The notes beneath the pieces are model-generated. The model saw only the letters and a list, made by a program, of their open reading frames with translations, was not told the origin of the DNA and searched no databases. A DNA stretch of 64,000 bases from Brucella pituitosa (lineage in GTDB: Bacteria > Pseudomonadota > Alphaproteobacteria > Rhizobiales > Rhizobiaceae). The translations under genes were made by a program, and so were the position numbers. Positions 10,850 to 16,868 of the stretch are shown here, one piece after another. Within the stretch, counting starts at the first letter, position 1. Each line of letters opens with the position of its first letter. The stretch covers positions 1,054,001 to 1,118,000 of the forward strand of contig NZ_PYSY02000001.1 in the NCBI RefSeq assembly GCF_003049685.1, given 5' to 3'.

Positions 10850-12166
10850 ATGAGCAATGCGGCGGCAGCAAAATCTGACGGCAAGCAGAAGGTATCCAGC
10901 AAGGCGCCTTCTTCTGGTCCGTTCTCAGGCTATGAGCGGATGATCGCATGGCGCTATTTGCGAGCGCGCCGCCGCGAGACGTTTATCTCGGTCATTGCCG
11001 GTTTTTCTTTCACTGGCATCATGCTTGGTGTTGCCACGCTCATCATTGTTATGGCGGTGATGAACGGGTTTCGTGCCGAGCTTTTGAACCGCATTTTGGG
11101 TATCAATGGCCACCTCATCATGCAGCCGATGGATCGGCCTCTTGATGATTATGCGAGCCTCATCCAGCGCATAGATGGGATCAAGGGTGTCCAGTTCGCT
11201 ATTCCTGTGGTCGAGGGGCAAGCCCTCGTTCAGGGTAACATCGGTGCTGGCACCGGTGCATTGGTACGTGGTCTTCGCGAAGAGGATCTTGACAAGCTCA
11301 AGCTTGTTTCCACGAATGTAAAACAGGGCACATTGAAGGGCTTCGATCAGAGCGGCGGCGTGGCAATTGGCACCCGTATGGCTGAAAATCTCGGCCTTTC
11401 TATTGGCGATTCACTGCGCGTTATCTCACCCGATGGTGACGTCACGCCTTTTGGCGTCAATCCACGCGTGAAGGCCTATCCGATTGTTGCAATCTTCGAG
11501 ATCGGCATGTCGGAATATGATGCGTCAATCGTCATGATGCCGCTCTCAGAGGCGCAGCTTTTCTTCAATCAGGAAGGCAAGGTGCAGTCGCTGGAGATAT
11601 TTGTCGATAACCCCGACAAGGTGGATGCAATGCGTGCGCCTGTCGAAGAAGTAGCAGCCCGCCAGATTTCTCTGGTGGATTGGCGCCAGCGTAACCAGAC
11701 TTTCTTTTCGGCGCTACAGGTCGAACGTAATGTCATGTTCATGATCCTGACGCTGATCGTGCTTGTCGCTGCGCTCAATATCATCTCCGGTCTCATCATG
11801 CTTGTGAAGGACAAGGGGCACGATATCGCTATCCTGCGCACCATGGGTGCAACGCGCGGCGCGGTGATGCGCATATTCCTGATGACTGGCGCTGCCATTG
11901 GTGTGACGGGGACGCTTGCAGGCGTCGTCTTAGGCGTTGTCGTATGCCTTAATGTTGAGCGTCTGCGTGAGTTCTTCTCTTGGCTTTCGGGTACAACATT
12001 GTTCAATCCGGAACTTTATTTCCTGAGCACGCTACCCGCGAAGATGGATGTTGGTGAAACATTGTCCGTCATAGCAATGGCTTTGATCCTTTCTTTTATT
12101 GCCACCATTTTGCCGGCATGGCGCGCTGCTAAGCTCGATCCGGTCGAAGCCCTGAGGTATGAATAA
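10850..12166 (+). CDS. lolC: lipoprotein-releasing ABC transporter permease LolC
   Basis: This is an inner-membrane permease of the LolCDE machine, which extracts outer-membrane lipoproteins and hands them to LolA. The 438-residue protein has one transmembrane helix near residue 50 ([20 protein letters not shown]), a large periplasmic domain, and three C-terminal helices. The MacB/FtsX-type coupling motif [20 protein letters not shown] is near residue 320. A single LolC/E-type gene here, not a lolC/lolE pair, fits species using a LolF-like homodimer. The stop overlaps the lolD start. Confidence 0.95.
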
Positions 12167-12849
12167 TGGCGGCTGAAATCATTCTGCGTCTGGAAAATGT
12201 CAGCCGCGCCTATAAGGAAGCTGATCGCGAACTCGTTATTCTCAAGGACGCGAACTTTACACTGCGTCGCGGCGAGATGGTCGCGCTCGTTGCACCATCT
12301 GGTGCGGGCAAGTCGACTTTGCTGCATACAGCCGGTCTGCTTGAACGCCCGGACAGCGGCGATGTCATTATTGATGGCCGTTCATGTGGTGGTCTGTCGG
12401 AAGACGAGCGTACAGCGGTTCGTCGCAACGATGTCGGCTTTGTCTATCAGTTCCATCATCTGTTGCCGGAATTTTCAGCCCTTGAAAATGTGATGATGCC
12501 GCAAATGATCCGTGGTTTGCCGCAGAAGGCAGCATCAGTACGTGCACAGCAGCTGCTCGATTATATGAAGATCGGCAAGCGTGCGTCTCATCGTCCCTCG
12601 GAGCTTTCCGGTGGTGAGCAGCAGCGCGTCGCGATTGCGCGTGCGGTTGCCAATGCGCCTCTGGTATTGTTGGCCGATGAGCCGACAGGCAATCTCGATC
12701 CGACGACCTCGTCTTATGTCTTCGGTGCGCTGGAAGCACTTGTGCGTCAGTCGGGCCTTGCAGCTTTGATTGCAACGCATAACCACGAACTGGCCCGCCG
12801 TATGGATCGTCGTGTGACGCTTCGCGAAGGCAAGGTCGTCGACGTCTAA
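12166..12849 (+). CDS. lolD: lipoprotein-releasing ABC transporter ATPase LolD
   Basis: This is the cytoplasmic ATPase that drives lipoprotein release with LolC. The 227-residue protein has Walker [10 protein letters not shown] around residues 43-51, a Q-loop in [11 protein letters not shown], the ABC signature [14 protein letters not shown] near residue 144, Walker [13 protein letters not shown], and the switch His in IATHNHELA. The [11 protein letters not shown] segment after the Q-loop is typical of LolD. The start overlaps the lolC stop by one base, so the two are translationally coupled. Confidence 0.97.
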
Positions 12850-12858
12850 TCAGTCGCC

Positions 12859-12896
12859 TATCAAGGGGCGATGCGCAAAGCGCTCGCGCCTTGATA
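12859..12896 (+). other. hairpin after lolD
   Basis: TATCAAGG and CCTTGATA form an eight-pair stem extended by partly paired GGCG/CGCG around a GC-rich loop. There is no T-run, so it could stabilise the 3' end or assist Rho-dependent termination. Confidence 0.35.
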
Positions 12897-13020
12897 TGTA
12901 GACAAAACTTCCCCCTCATATCTTGTTTGTTCAACGCCGGTGGCCATGCTGCCGGCGATTGCACGTTTATTTTTCGTAAACCTTAAATACATGCATCTAT
13001 AAGAACGGGTGTTGACATTA

Positions 13021-13035
13021 GAACAAAAATGGAAC
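13021..13035 (+). promoter_or_regulatory. LexA (SOS) box
   Basis: GAAC-N7-GAAC is an exact match to the alphaproteobacterial LexA operator. It lies 38 bases upstream of the small membrane-protein ORF at 13074. It is flanked by TTGACA at 13012-13017 and a possible TATAAG -10 at 12998-13003, so LexA bound here would block transcription of the small gene. Confidence 0.82.
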
Positions 13036-13073
13036 AAAAAATAAACATACGTGAACAAAGAGGAGTTATTCCA

Positions 13074-13160
13074 ATGACCGATCTCGTCTACGACGTTTTG
13101 TCTTTCGTCTCCGTCAGCCTGTTCGTTGCCACTTTCGCCATCTGGGTAAGTGTAATCTGA
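13074..13160 (+). CDS. 28-residue SOS-controlled membrane protein (SidA-like candidate)
   Basis: A short gene with an excellent ribosome binding site (AGAGGAG at 13059-13065, 8 bases before the ATG) encodes 28 residues starting MTDLVYDVLSFV and ending IWVSVI. Apart from a short acidic N-terminus the whole chain is one hydrophobic helix. A perfect LexA box precedes it. In Caulobacter the SOS-induced inhibitor of cell division SidA is a 29-residue single-span inner-membrane protein acting on the division machinery, and from memory its gene is next to dnaE, as here. Size, topology, LexA control and position all agree, but residue similarity could not be tested. A GGGTTC/GAACCC hairpin follows at 13172-13189. 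Confidence 0.72.
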   Translation: MTDLVYDVLSFVSVSLFVATFAIWVSVI

Positions 13161-13379
13161 AAACGTGATAAGGGTTCTTCTGTGAACCCCGTTGATTGTA
13201 ACGACCGTCGCTCTGGACTTCGTTGCCGTATTCCCCGAAACTGGCGTAGTGGGCGATAAGAGTCGCCCGTTACCGGGTGCAGCTCTCATTGAATGAGACG
13301 TGCCCGGACGGCGCTGGGACATGATTTCGCTATCATGGTATGGCAGTGCTTTCAGCTCTGTATAGATCGGGGAAATAGA

Positions 13380-16300
13380 ATGAGTGATACAGCAAGCATT
13401 GCAGCGGGCGAGGGCAAGTCGTCACCTCGTTTCGTCCATTTGCGGGTACATTCTGCCTATTCCTTGCTTGAAGGCGCATTGCCTGTCGGCAAGATCATCA
13501 AACAGGCGATTGCCGATGAAGCACCGGCCATCGCGATAACTGATAGCAATAATCTTTTTGGTGCACTGGAATTTGCGCAGAAGGCGTCGAAAGACGGTTT
13601 GCAGCCAATTATCGGTTGTCAGCTGGACTTGGGGTTTGGCGATCACAATGATAACAGCCGCAGTGCCAATCGCCGACTGGTTCTCGATTTGGCGCCTGTT
13701 GTTTTGCTCGCTTCGACCGAAGAGGGCTATGCGAATATCGTTAGGCTCGTCAGCCGTGCCTTCCTTGATACTCCGTCGGGCGATCCGGTTCACATCGAAG
13801 CAAACTGGCTATCCGGCTTGTCCGATGACGTCATTGTGCTTTCGGGTGGACAGCTCGGTCCAATCGGACGGGCTTTTGCTGCAGACCGCCCGGACCGTGC
13901 AGAAGCACGTCTGGCGTTTTTGAAAGAAGCTTTTGGAAATCGGCTATATGTCGAATTGCAGCGACAATCCGGCTATGACCGTGCGCTTGAGGCGAAGACT
14001 GTTGAGCTCGCCTATGCGATGGACTTACCGCTTGTTGCAACCAATGAAGCCTTCTTCCTCAAGGCGGAAGACTTCGAGGCACATGACGCGCTGCTTGCTA
14101 TTGCCGAAGGGCAAATCCTTTCCAATGATGATCGCCGCCGTCTGACACCGGATCATCATCTCAAAAGCCGCGCAGAAATGGCGGCTCTATTTGCAGACCT
14201 GCCGGAAGCACTCGAAAACACGATTGAAATTGCCGAACGTTGCAGCTGGTTCACGCAGACGCGTCAGCCCATTCTGCCGCGCTTTACTGGTGAGTCTGAT
14301 GATCCAGAGGCAGGTATTCAGGCCGAAGCCGAAGAGCTGGCCCGACAGGCGCGTGAAGGCCTGAAGATGCGGCTGGAAACTGCCGGTCTTGCCGAAGGAT
14401 ATACGGAAGAACAATATGCCGAACGTCTCGATTACGAGATTGGCATTATCACCCGCATGAAGTTCCCGGGTTACTTCCTGATCGTTGCGGACTTTATCAA
14501 ATGGGCGAAGTTGCACGGCATTCCAGTCGGGCCGGGACGTGGTTCAGGTGCTGGCTCTCTCGTCGCTTACGCATTGACTATTACCGACGTCGACCCACTA
14601 AGGTTTTCGCTGCTGTTTGAGCGCTTTCTTAATCCAGACCGCGTATCGATGCCCGATTTTGATATCGACTTCTGTCAGGAACGCCGCGAAGAAGTCATTC
14701 GCTACGTACAGGAGAAATATGGGCGCGATCAGGTCGCACAGATCATAACTTTCGGAACGCTTCAGGCGCGCGCTGTGCTGCGCGACGTGGGACGCGTTCT
14801 CGAAATGCCTTACGGGCAGGTTGACCGTCTTTGTAAGCTGGTGCCGCAGAACCCGGCCAATCCGGTGTCACTGGCGCAGGCTATTGAGACAGAGCCGAAA
14901 ATCAATGAAGAGCGCGAGAAAGAACCGGTCGTCGGTCGTCTTCTCGATATGGCGCTGAAGCTTGAAGGGCTTTATCGCCACGCCTCAACGCACGCTGCCG
15001 GTATTGTGATTGGTGATCGGCCTCTTTCTGAACTCGTGCCAATGTATCGCGATCCTCGTTCGGATATGCCGGTTACTCAGTTTAACATGAAGTGGGTCGA
15101 GCAGGCGGGACTGGTCAAGTTCGACTTTCTCGGTCTGAAAACGCTCACCGTGCTGGAAACAGCCGTCAAGCTTGTTGCGCGTAAAGGCATTGAAATTGAC
15201 CTTACGCGCCTGCCGTTCGATGACGCACTGACTTATGAAATGCTTTCGCGCGGCGAAACCGTCGGCGTGTTCCAGGTTGAAAGTGCGGGCATGCGCAAGG
15301 CGCTGCTCGGCATGCGTCCTGACCGGATTGAGGACATTATTGCGCTTGTGGCGCTTTATCGTCCGGGTCCGATGGAGAATATCCCGACCTATAATGCGCG
15401 TAAGAACGGTGAGGAGGAAATCGCCTCCATTCACCCGAAAATCGACGGCCTTATCAAGGAAACGCAGGGCGTTATCGTCTATCAGGAACAGGTTATGCAG
15501 ATCGCGCAGGTGCTTTCGGGCTATTCGCTCGGTGAAGCTGACCTTCTGCGTCGCGCGATGGGTAAGAAGATCCGCGAGGAGATGGACAAGCAGCGCGTTC
15601 GTTTCGTCGATGGTGCGATTGAAGGCGGTGTCGACAAGGCGCAGGCGAATATGATTTTCGACCTGTTGGCCAAGTTCGCTGACTATGGCTTCAACAAGTC
15701 TCATGCCGCAGCCTATGCAATCGTGTCTTACCAGACCGCCTATATGAAGGCGCATTATCCAGTCGAGTTCCTCGCGGCTTCGATGACCTACGATATGTCC
15801 AACGCCGACAAGCTCAACGATTTCCGCCGCGAGGCCAATCGTCTGGGTATCGATGTGGTGACACCATCTGTCATGACTTCCTTCCGCCCGTTTGAAGTTG
15901 GCGAAAAGAAGATTTTCTACTCGTTGGCAGCGATTAAGGGCGTTGGCGAAGCGGCTGTGGACCATATCGTCAATGTGCGGGCTGAGAAGCCGTTTGAAAG
16001 CCTTGAGGATTTCTGCGAGCGTATTGATCCGAAAATCGTCAATCGACGTGTGATGGAAAGCTTGATCAATGCGGGCGCGCTCGATTGTTTTGGGCGTGAT
16101 CGCGCTGCAATGAGCGCGGGCATGGATCGCATCATGGGCTTTGCGCAGCGCACTCAGGAAAATGCGGCCAGTGGTCAGTCCGACATTTTCGGTCTTTCGG
16201 GAGCGCCAAAGGAACAATTGATCCTGCCACAGGCCGCTCCCTGGTTGCCGTCAGAAAAGCTGCACCGCGAATTCCAGGCGGTAGGCTTTTATCTATCTGC

Positions 16301-16868
16301 TCATCCGCTGGACGAATATCGTCAGGTTCTCGATCGTATGCGCGTTCAGAGTTGGGCAGATTTCTCGGCCGCTGTGAAGCGCGGTGCAAATGCAGGACGT
16401 CTGGCGGGCACTGTCACCACGCGTCAGGAACGCAAAACGCGCACTGGCAACAAGATGGGTATCGTGCAGCTTTCCGATGCCAGCGGTCAGTTTGAAGCTG
16501 TGCTTTTCTCCGAAGGTCTTGCGCAGTATCGCGATCTTCTCGAAAGTGGTAAATCGGTGGTCATCACGGTTGCCGCCGAAAACCGTCCGGAAGGCATAGG
16601 CTTGCGTATCCAGACGGTACAATCGCTGGAAGATGAGGCATGCCGGATGCAGAAGGCGCTCCGGCTTTATCTTCGCTCCGCTGAAGCTTTGAAGCACATC
16701 GTGCCGCATTTCAACACGCGTGGCGATGGTCAGGTGAGCCTTATCGTGATCAAGGAAGAAGGCCAGCGTGAAGTTGAGATCGAACTTCCGCATCGCTATC
16801 GTGTCAGCCCACAGATCGCCAGCGCCATGAAGGCAATTCCCGGTGTCGTGGAAGTCGAACTGGTTTAG
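13380..16868 (+). CDS. dnaE: DNA polymerase III subunit alpha
   Basis: This is the catalytic subunit of the replicative polymerase. I use the ATG at 13380 (MSDTASIAAGEG) because GGGGA lies before it, giving 1162 residues. The open frame runs 29 codons further upstream. The N-terminal PHP domain starts at FVHLRVHSAYSLLEG. The polymerase core carries the catalytic aspartates in MPDFDIDFCQERREEVI near residue 425. Helix-hairpin-helix elements and the C-terminal OB fold (RLAGTVTTRQERKTRTGNKM) follow. Its length and OB fold mark it as DnaE1, not the SOS polymerase DnaE2. Its TAG stop is also the first three bases of a palindromic repeat. Confidence 0.97.
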   Translation: MSDTASIAAGEGKSSPRFVHLRVHSAYSLLEGALPVGKIIKQAIADEAPAIAITDSNNLFGALEFAQKASKDGLQPIIGCQLDLGFGDHNDNSRSANRRLVLDLAPVVLLASTEEGYANIVRLVSRAFLDTPSGDPVHIEANWLSGLSDDVIVLSGGQLGPIGRAFAADRPDRAEARLAFLKEAFGNRLYVELQRQSGYDRALEAKTVELAYAMDLPLVATNEAFFLKAEDFEAHDALLAIAEGQILSNDDRRRLTPDHHLKSRAEMAALFADLPEALENTIEIAERCSWFTQTRQPILPRFTGESDDPEAGIQAEAEELARQAREGLKMRLETAGLAEGYTEEQYAERLDYEIGIITRMKFPGYFLIVADFIKWAKLHGIPVGPGRGSGAGSLVAYALTITDVDPLRFSLLFERFLNPDRVSMPDFDIDFCQERREEVIRYVQEKYGRDQVAQIITFGTLQARAVLRDVGRVLEMPYGQVDRLCKLVPQNPANPVSLAQAIETEPKINEEREKEPVVGRLLDMALKLEGLYRHASTHAAGIVIGDRPLSELVPMYRDPRSDMPVTQFNMKWVEQAGLVKFDFLGLKTLTVLETAVKLVARKGIEIDLTRLPFDDALTYEMLSRGETVGVFQVESAGMRKALLGMRPDRIEDIIALVALYRPGPMENIPTYNARKNGEEEIASIHPKIDGLIKETQGVIVYQEQVMQIAQVLSGYSLGEADLLRRAMGKKIREEMDKQRVRFVDGAIEGGVDKAQANMIFDLLAKFADYGFNKSHAAAYAIVSYQTAYMKAHYPVEFLAASMTYDMSNADKLNDFRREANRLGIDVVTPSVMTSFRPFEVGEKKIFYSLAAIKGVGEAAVDHIVNVRAEKPFESLEDFCERIDPKIVNRRVMESLINAGALDCFGRDRAAMSAGMDRIMGFAQRTQENAASGQSDIFGLSGAPKEQLILPQAAPWLPSEKLHREFQAVGFYLSAHPLDEYRQVLDRMRVQSWADFSAAVKRGANAGRLAGTVTTRQERKTRTGNKMGIVQLSDASGQFEAVLFSEGLAQYRDLLESGKSVVITVAAENRPEGIGLRIQTVQSLEDEACRMQKALRLYLRSAEALKHIVPHFNTRGDGQVSLIVIKEEGQREVEIELPHRYRVSPQIASAMKAIPGVVEVELV

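What the first reader, a model, noticed from the sequence alone, without database searches (positions are those of the whole stretch)
13012..13160. SOS-controlled 28-residue membrane protein next to dnaE: a SidA-type division inhibitor
A perfect GAAC-N7-GAAC LexA box precedes an ORF of 28 codons with a textbook SD. The product is a short acidic N-terminus plus one transmembrane helix. Caulobacter SidA is a 29-residue, LexA-controlled single-span protein that blocks division during SOS. From memory its gene also neighbours dnaE. Such tiny genes escape standard annotation, so this may be an undescribed SidA counterpart in Brucellaceae.
Basis: partly seen in the sequence, partly recalled or inferred. 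Interest (0 to 1): 0.82.

Follow-up and report, generated by a model that had tools for sequence, protein, structure and literature searches.

The report
Overlooked SidA-type SOS division-brake gene
A tiny, overlooked gene that looks switched on by DNA damage encodes a 28-residue membrane protein that very probably halts cell division during repair, and relatives sit in the same place in many alphaproteobacteria, so a brake known from one model bacterium looks old and widespread.

Summary
ORF 13074-13160 (28 aa, one hydrophobic helix) follows a perfect LexA box (13021-13035) between lolD and dnaE. The bare GAAC-N7-GAAC motif is no rarer than chance. The combination is: 0 of 3640 shuffled intervals reproduce box + SD + ATG ORF, while 35 of 61 family genomes, 39 of 41 Caulobacter-genus genomes and 29 of 80 named loci have it before dnaE. 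All 35 genomes of the genus search keep ORF and box; pN/pS is 0.106 in frame, 1.12 and 5.69 out of frame. Of 24 family genomes lacking it at dnaE, 20 match elsewhere, two weakly; of 20 off-dnaE loci read, 16 have a perfect box and 11 lie beside lolE-lolD. Caulobacter relatives at this locus have 29-30 aa, fitting SidA. Best reading: an orthologue of SidA, the LexA-controlled FtsW inhibitor. Direct similarity to the Caulobacter peptides is only modest; division block and FtsW binding are inferred. NCBIfam, Pfam and PHROGs have no model for it. A same-genus prophage-like region carries a second SidA-like ORF. New member of a known kind, unexpectedly widespread.

The parts
13074..13160 (+). sidA-like ORF, 28 aa, MTDLVYDVLSFVSVSLFVATFAIWVSVI; short acidic N-terminus and one hydrophobic helix
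   Evidence: read; 35 of 35 genus genomes; pN/pS 0.106; profile E 1.3e-11 (this peptide is a row of the profile)
13021..13035 (+). LexA (SOS) box GAACAAAAATGGAAC
   Evidence: perfect box in 35 of 35 genus genomes; rank 3 of 100 listed genomic GAAC-N7-GAAC sites by spacer matrix
13012..13017 (+). -35-like hexamer TTGACA directly before the box
   Evidence: TTGAC before the box in 34 of 35 genus genomes; the sigma-70 scan found no promoter-like pair in 12900-13420
13053..13056 (+). third GAAC half-site, conserved; role unknown
   Evidence: [GA]TGAAC at 16-19 nt after the second half-site in 35 of 35
13060..13065 (+). Shine-Dalgarno GAGGAG
   Evidence: GAGGAG in 34 of 35 and GAAGAG in 1 of 35 genus genomes
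13172..13189 (+). terminator-like hairpin after the stop, weak T tail
   Evidence: 1 found, 0.7 expected in shuffles; found in 16 of 35 genus genomes by a simple pattern, so not generally conserved
12166..12849 (+). lolD, upstream neighbour
   Evidence: NCBIfam TIGR02211 E 3.7e-76, best match, below its curated cut-off
10850..12166 (+). lolE/lolC-type permease gene
   Evidence: NCBIfam TIGR02212 E 1.5e-157, above cut-off
13380..16868 (+). dnaE, downstream neighbour (likely start 13380; the mechanical ORF begins at 13293)
   Evidence: NCBIfam NF004226 and TIGR00594 above cut-off; ORF list

Best explanation
The ORF is an orthologue of Caulobacter sidA. In undamaged cells LexA sits on the box at 13021-13035, just after a -35-like hexamer, and keeps the gene off (inferred from the box). 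DNA damage activates RecA, LexA is cleaved, and a 28-residue peptide is made that inserts in the inner membrane by its single helix (hydrophobic stretch shown by sequence; insertion inferred). There it contacts the transmembrane part of FtsW and holds the FtsW/FtsI/FtsN complex in its inactive state, so cells elongate without dividing until repair is done (inferred from what is published for SidA; FtsW itself is present). Removal of the peptide and re-repression by LexA release the block (inferred).
For: Frame under strong purifying selection in 35 genomes: pN/pS 0.106, variable columns 10/1/24 at codon positions 1/2/3 of 27 codons. Box perfect in 35 of 35. Box-SD-ATG-ORF arrangement before dnaE in 35 of 61 family (own genome included), 39 of 41 Caulobacter-genus and 29 of 80 named loci, against 0 of 3640 shuffles. 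A profile matches elsewhere in 20 of the 24 family genomes that lack it at dnaE (two of the 20 weak, E 0.0012 and 0.006); of 20 off-dnaE loci fetched, 16 have a perfect box within 110 nt and 11 have lolE-lolD beside it. Gene order lolE-lolD-sidA-dnaE is shared with a Caulobacter-genus genome (L277). LexA present, SulA absent in the own genome and three others. FtsW residues A31, F145 and A246, where substitutions relieve SidA in C. crescentus (PMC4211646, passages), are identical in the own FtsW. An sORF in the 5'-UTR of dnaE1 of S. meliloti is translated by Ribo-seq (PMC10117765, passages), probably this gene.
Against: Sequence similarity to the Caulobacter peptides alone is modest: 119 of 5000 shuffles of the window peptide score as well against a Caulobacter-only HMM; the median family peptide (5.1 bits) lies below the decoy 99th percentile (7.1), with 10 of 35 above it; in the reverse test 21 of 30 are above. 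In a class-wide sample only 4 of 288 other genomes match the profile at E<=0.01, so it is not universal. The peptide lacks the R/K before the acidic residue that most relatives in A1 have, so topology is not clear from charge. FtsW residue identity may reflect general FtsW conservation (three proteins compared). No promoter-like pair was found by the sigma-70 scan. No induction, translation or division data exist for this organism here. The S. meliloti sORF's sequence could not be read.
Confidence: 0.8

Rival explanations
1. It is a regulatory leader peptide (uORF) whose translation tunes dnaE, and the LexA box serves to raise dnaE after damage.
For: It lies in the dnaE 5' region; the S. meliloti paper suggests uORF roles for such sORFs (PMC10117765, passage); in the Caulobacter genus the gap to the dnaE match is 27-62 nt in 34 of 40 loci, so co-transcription is likely there.
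Against: The encoded amino acids are conserved while third positions vary; the gap to the dnaE match varies from 14 to 577 nt; 20 of the 24 family genomes lacking it at dnaE match elsewhere, and 16 of 20 off-dnaE loci read keep a perfect box.
Confidence: 0.07
2. It is an SOS-induced membrane-acting peptide of the TisB/DinQ kind that disturbs the membrane rather than binding the divisome.
For: Size, single helix and LexA control fit; TisB is recalled, DinQ was seen only as an abstract in a search listing (PMC3567139).
Against: No Rfam match at gathering score in 12850-13400, and no further search for an antisense RNA was made; one conserved chromosomal locus and a shared pattern around (R/K)(D/E), (A/S)(L/F) and F17 suit a specific partner better; SidA acts on FtsW (PMC4211646).
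Confidence: 0.06
3. It blocks division but through another divisome part (for example FtsN or FtsI) because the partner has drifted.
For: In the two-hybrid assay SidA interacts with FtsN as well as FtsW (PMC4211646, passage); the C-terminal half varies widely among relatives.
Against: FtsW positions tied to SidA are identical in the own genome.
Confidence: 0.06

Closest known systems
SidA of Caulobacter crescentus (CCNA_02004)
   Same: 28 against 29 aa, one helix, LexA box, position after lolE-lolD and just upstream of dnaE; the ungapped alignment with the G392 peptide keeps an acidic residue 7, L9, V12-S13-V14 and F17-V18
   Different: 25% identity to the G392 peptide, the presumed C. crescentus copy; no basic residue at the N-terminus; 219 nt to dnaE here; function untested here
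sORF25 in the dnaE1 5'-UTR of Sinorhizobium meliloti (PMC10117765)
   Same: a translated small ORF at the same position in a rhizobium
   Different: its sequence and length were not readable here, so identity is likely, not shown; the main text does not contain SOS, LexA or SidA
DidA of C. crescentus
   Same: small single-helix division inhibitor acting on the FtsW/FtsI/FtsN complex
   Different: 71 aa, SOS-independent (DriD-controlled), binds FtsN (PMC4211646, passages)
YneA, ChiZ, SosA of Gram-positives
   Same: damage-induced membrane division inhibitors; YneA also interacts with FtsW (PMC13396833, passages)
   Different: larger and unrelated in sequence (recalled, not tested); ChiZ has a LysM domain
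SulA of enterobacteria
   Same: LexA-controlled division inhibitor
   Different: acts on FtsZ; no SulA match in the own genome

Membership tests
SidA | LexA box in the promoter region | tested here: met
   perfect box in 35 of 35 genus genomes, spacer rank 3 of 100 listed sites
SidA | about 29 aa with a single transmembrane helix | tested here: met
   28 aa, Kyte-Doolittle maximum 2.37 over 15 residues; 29 aa inner-membrane protein is from PMC4211646 (passage)
SidA | locus: after lolE-lolD and directly before dnaE | tested here: met
   sidA tag CCNA_02004 and dnaE CC1926; that these two tags are neighbours is recalled
SidA | sequence homology to Caulobacter SidA | tested here: inconclusive
   119 of 5000 shuffles score as well; intermediates from other genera align without gaps in the core; the published SidA sequence itself was not held
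SidA | damage-induced, LexA- and RecA-dependent expression | not testable with these tools
   no expression data held
SidA | binds FtsW and blocks division | not testable with these tools
   only FtsW presence and three residues checked
SulA | SulA domain PF03846 | tested here: not met
   0 of 4 genomes match; the control rings in E. coli only
DidA | about 71 aa and SOS-independent | tested here: not met
   28 aa with a LexA box
TisB/DinQ-type toxin with antisense RNA | known antisense RNA partner | tested here: inconclusive
   no Rfam family at gathering score in 12850-13400; an undescribed RNA is not excluded

The most novel reading that the evidence does not exclude
SidA is not a Caulobacter speciality but the ancestral SOS division brake of the lineage that holds Caulobacterales and Hyphomicrobiales: it arose in the gap of an old lolE-lolD-dnaE gene string, was kept through rearrangements that split that string, was lost in reduced genomes, and has been picked up by prophages that carry their own LexA-like protein, so that a phage may use it to arrest host division.
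Probability: 0.5. Interest if true: 0.72.

Novelty: new member of a known kind. Interest (0 to 1): 0.6.

Why it matters
In the listings and passages I saw, no paper names the effector of the damage checkpoint on division in rhizobia, and none describes SidA outside Caulobacter. The searches were made, in an open-access library that lacks the 2011 SidA paper, so earlier mention elsewhere is possible. This finding gives one candidate with a testable promoter and partner, may explain a translated sORF of unknown role at S. meliloti dnaE1, and offers 90 distinct natural peptides and more for mapping the SidA-FtsW contact. It also shows that a 28-residue gene under strong selection has no model in NCBIfam, Pfam or PHROGs.

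Tried and rejected
Judging the box by its motif alone: rejected, since GAAC-N7-GAAC occurs at chance level. First survey wrongly missed relatives in family genomes on the minus strand because those loci are not turned; redone with the strand corrected. One search translated the wrong frame of L105 and was not used. One search aligned the wrong frames for FtsW; redone. BLAST-like search with one 29-aa peptide over 289 class genomes gave 57 of 289 genomes at E<=1, partial matches that I did not use: too short to be specific. The profile over the same-sized class sample gave 5 of 289 at E<=0.01, the own genome included. DNA search of the interval in plasmids: no match. Phage tblastn with the prophage peptide: none; plasmids: two matches at E=7 judged chance. 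Hairpin 13172-13189 as a conserved terminator: 16 of 35 only. Structure prediction was not tried: the peptide is under the 30-residue minimum. PADLOC was not searched.

Rows dropped or special: in the named set 3 of 80 loci have under 300 nt before the dnaE match (L045, L052, L075) and are counted as negatives; in the family set L010 has 391 nt, and in the Caulobacter set L151 has 140 nt. One search added five by profile outside the rules (L025, L078, L088, L151, L226). In one search the best hit of L043 was a longer frame; the 32-aa start was used, the longer one. L105 (named set) and L122 (Caulobacter set) are the same place. Of the 20 family genomes with an off-dnaE match, 17 were read (18 loci); G018, G040 and G056 were not. 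One search left L065, L080 and L105 out of its 'other named' set.

Full report
What is there. One search shows, in order, lolD ending at 12849, TTGACA at 13012-13017, GAACAAAAATGGAAC at 13021-13035, GAGGAG at 13060-13065, and an ATG at 13074 opening a 28-codon frame that stops at 13160; dnaE starts at 13380. NCBIfam names lolE/C, lolD (best match, under its cut-off) and dnaE, and gives nothing for the 28 aa; Pfam and PHROGs give nothing either.

Is it more than chance? The bare motif is not informative: 1 in the window against 2.05 expected, 173 in the genome against 156 for the reversed pattern. The spacer is: a matrix built from 71 distinct perfect boxes before relatives of the ORF, leaving out L002-L004 (the window's genome, a same-genus genome and the nearest other genus), ranks this box 3rd of the 100 genomic sites that one search listed (of 173), and 127 of 200,000 random spacers do as well. 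The 1st-ranked site is upstream of ssb and the 9th beside uvrA, the 6th before recA, and the 15th before lexA. The others fetched (ranks 2, 4, 5, 7, 8, 10 and 14) lie at genes I did not identify; NCBIfam gave no name at 1e-10 for the two neighbours tested, beside the 2nd- and 4th-ranked sites. The whole arrangement (box with at most one mismatch, SD, ATG, 22-46 aa with a hydrophobic stretch) was found in 0 of 3640 dinucleotide-shuffled intervals and on 0 of 182 opposite strands, against 35 of 61, 29 of 80 and 39 of 41 real intervals; with perfect boxes the real counts are 32, 25 and 20.

Selection. One search covered 35 genomes of the genus, the own one included; 35 matched, and 35 keep the ORF. 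Twenty-seven distinct DNA versions encode 15 distinct proteins; pN/pS is 0.106 in frame, 1.12 and 5.69 in the other two frames; third codon positions vary in 24 of 27 codons, second positions in 1. In 15-nt bins identity to the window is 0.73-0.96 from 13015 to 13164, then 0.41-0.78 down to 13284 and 0.26-0.42 beyond; a second island of 0.85 lies at 12970-12984, which I did not follow. The box is perfect in 35 of 35, a TTGAC precedes it in 34, GAGGAG is kept in 34. A third GAAC at 13053-13056 is conserved in 35 of 35; I have no explanation for it.

Distribution. The dnaE-upstream interval was read in 61 family genomes, the own one included, in 41 genomes of the genus of G349, the genome of a Caulobacter sp. 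locus, and in 80 named contigs. With a box of at most one mismatch and any of three start codons, 35, 40 and 29 have the gene; a profile adds two, one and two. Named positives include Rhizobium, Neorhizobium, Ahrensia, Aureimonas, Bauldia, Bradyrhizobium, Ancylobacter, Tardiphaga, Devosia, Roseibium, Microvirga, Methylobacterium, Phenylobacterium, Brevundimonas, Caulobacter, Maricaulis, Hellea and Robiginitomaculum. Named negatives at dnaE include Mesorhizobium, Bartonella, Xanthobacter, Azospirillum and every record that I assign by its title to Rhodobacterales. The profile A1 (31 rows) over 61 family genomes matches 57 at E<=0.1; part of its rows came from these genomes, but the off-dnaE copies did not. 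Of the 24 family genomes without it at dnaE, 20 match elsewhere (G040 and G018 only weakly, E 0.0012 and 0.006) and 4 do not: three of 1.1-2.0 Mb and one 76% complete. Twenty off-dnaE loci were fetched, 18 from 17 of those genomes and two second copies. Sixteen of 20 have a perfect box within 110 nt, several with further half-sites in an 11-bp phase; 11 of 20 lie beside lolE-lolD. So in that group dnaE left and the small gene stayed with lolD.

Origin of the locus. In the named set plus the Caulobacter-genus locus L277, tblastn shows lolD at 50% identity or more beside dnaE in 17 loci with the gene and in 14 counted without it. That script did not carry L277 in its list of positives, so one of the 14 is really a positive with lolD; the corrected figures are 18 and 13. 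In 12 of the 13 lolD ends within 300 nt of the dnaE match. The simple reading is an old lolE-lolD-dnaE string into which the small gene was inserted; loss in the 13 is not excluded. In a class-wide sample only 4 of 288 other genomes match the profile at E<=0.01, so it is not general in the class; the profile may also be too narrow for remote relatives.

Is it SidA? SidA is a 29-aa inner-membrane protein, SOS-induced, that interacts with FtsW (PMC4211646, passages), tag CCNA_02004 (PMC10769358, passage); dnaE is CC1926 (PMC1839093, passage). That the two tags are adjacent is recalled. In the Caulobacter-genus genomes the gene before dnaE encodes 29 or 30 aa, with a box of at most one mismatch in 40 of 41. 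The published SidA letters were not held, so no direct comparison was made. Against a Caulobacter-only HMM the window peptide scores 7.7 bits, reached by 119 of 5000 of its shuffles; 10 of 35 family peptides exceed the 99th percentile of decoys and the median (5.1) is below it (7.1); in reverse 21 of 30 Caulobacter peptides exceed it; other named peptides exceed it in 14 of 26 and 20 of 26. Sequence alone is suggestive; with the shared locus, regulation and length, plus intermediates that align without gaps in the core, orthology is well supported.

Mechanism. The own genome has LexA (its profile match begins 58 nt after a GAAC-N7-GAAC), no SulA and one FtsW/RodA-family match. A31, F145 and A246 of FtsW are identical between G392, the own genome and G057. 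The paper reports FtsW(A31K) as strongly relieving SidA but not DidA, and F145L and A246T as relieving both. A 2026 paper predicts with AlphaFold 3, in models not of high confidence, that SidA contacts FtsW TM7 (PMC13396833, passages). I therefore infer division arrest through FtsW. Translation has possible support from a relative: an sORF in the dnaE1 5'-UTR of S. meliloti is among those detected as translated (PMC10117765, passages); I could not read its sequence.

Prophage copy. G016, of the same genus, has a second relative (MRDLLHDIASFVAVSTFIATFAVWAGYLAEKV, E 1.0e-7) about 0.75 kb before an exonuclease VIII gene and about 6 kb from a second LexA-type DNA-binding protein, with helicase-, HNH- and RecT-like frames around it (read by eye). 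It has no box of at most one mismatch within 110 nt, and its start overlaps the end of another small frame. The phage collection gave no match to it. Whether it acts on division is open.

Caveats. Literature searches cover an open-access library only, and papers were seen as listings or passages, none in full.

Noticed in passing
L276 (G016:C27:29000-42186), ORF at C27:37437: Prophage-like region in a same-genus genome carries a second SidA-like 32-aa ORF and a LexA-type DNA-binding protein (C27:31130-31321), with exonuclease VIII nearby.
   Followed up: partly
L239 (G059:C1:2113714) and L249 (G050:C16:109106): Two further family genomes carry extra SidA-like ORFs without a LexA box within 110 nt.
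   Followed up: partly
just after the ORF stop in L171-L173, L176, L177, L179, L180, L183-L185: In 10 of 35 genus loci, by eye, a different strongly folding sequence (gcatgtctcccaaaa...gacatgcg or similar) follows the stop where the window has its hairpin; looks like an inserted intergenic repeat.
   Followed up: no
window 13053-13056: A third GAAC, 17 nt after the end of the box, is conserved in 35 of 35 genus genomes; role unknown.
   Followed up: no
window 12970-12984: A short stretch upstream of the promoter is 85% identical across the 35 genus loci, between poorly conserved flanks.
   Followed up: no
family genomes G005, G006, G044: Three genomes of 1.1-2.0 Mb lack any SidA-like match, which suggests loss with genome reduction.
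   Followed up: no
PMC10117765: S. meliloti sORF25 in the dnaE1 5'-UTR is reported as translated with no assigned function in the passages seen; it may be this gene.
   Followed up: partly
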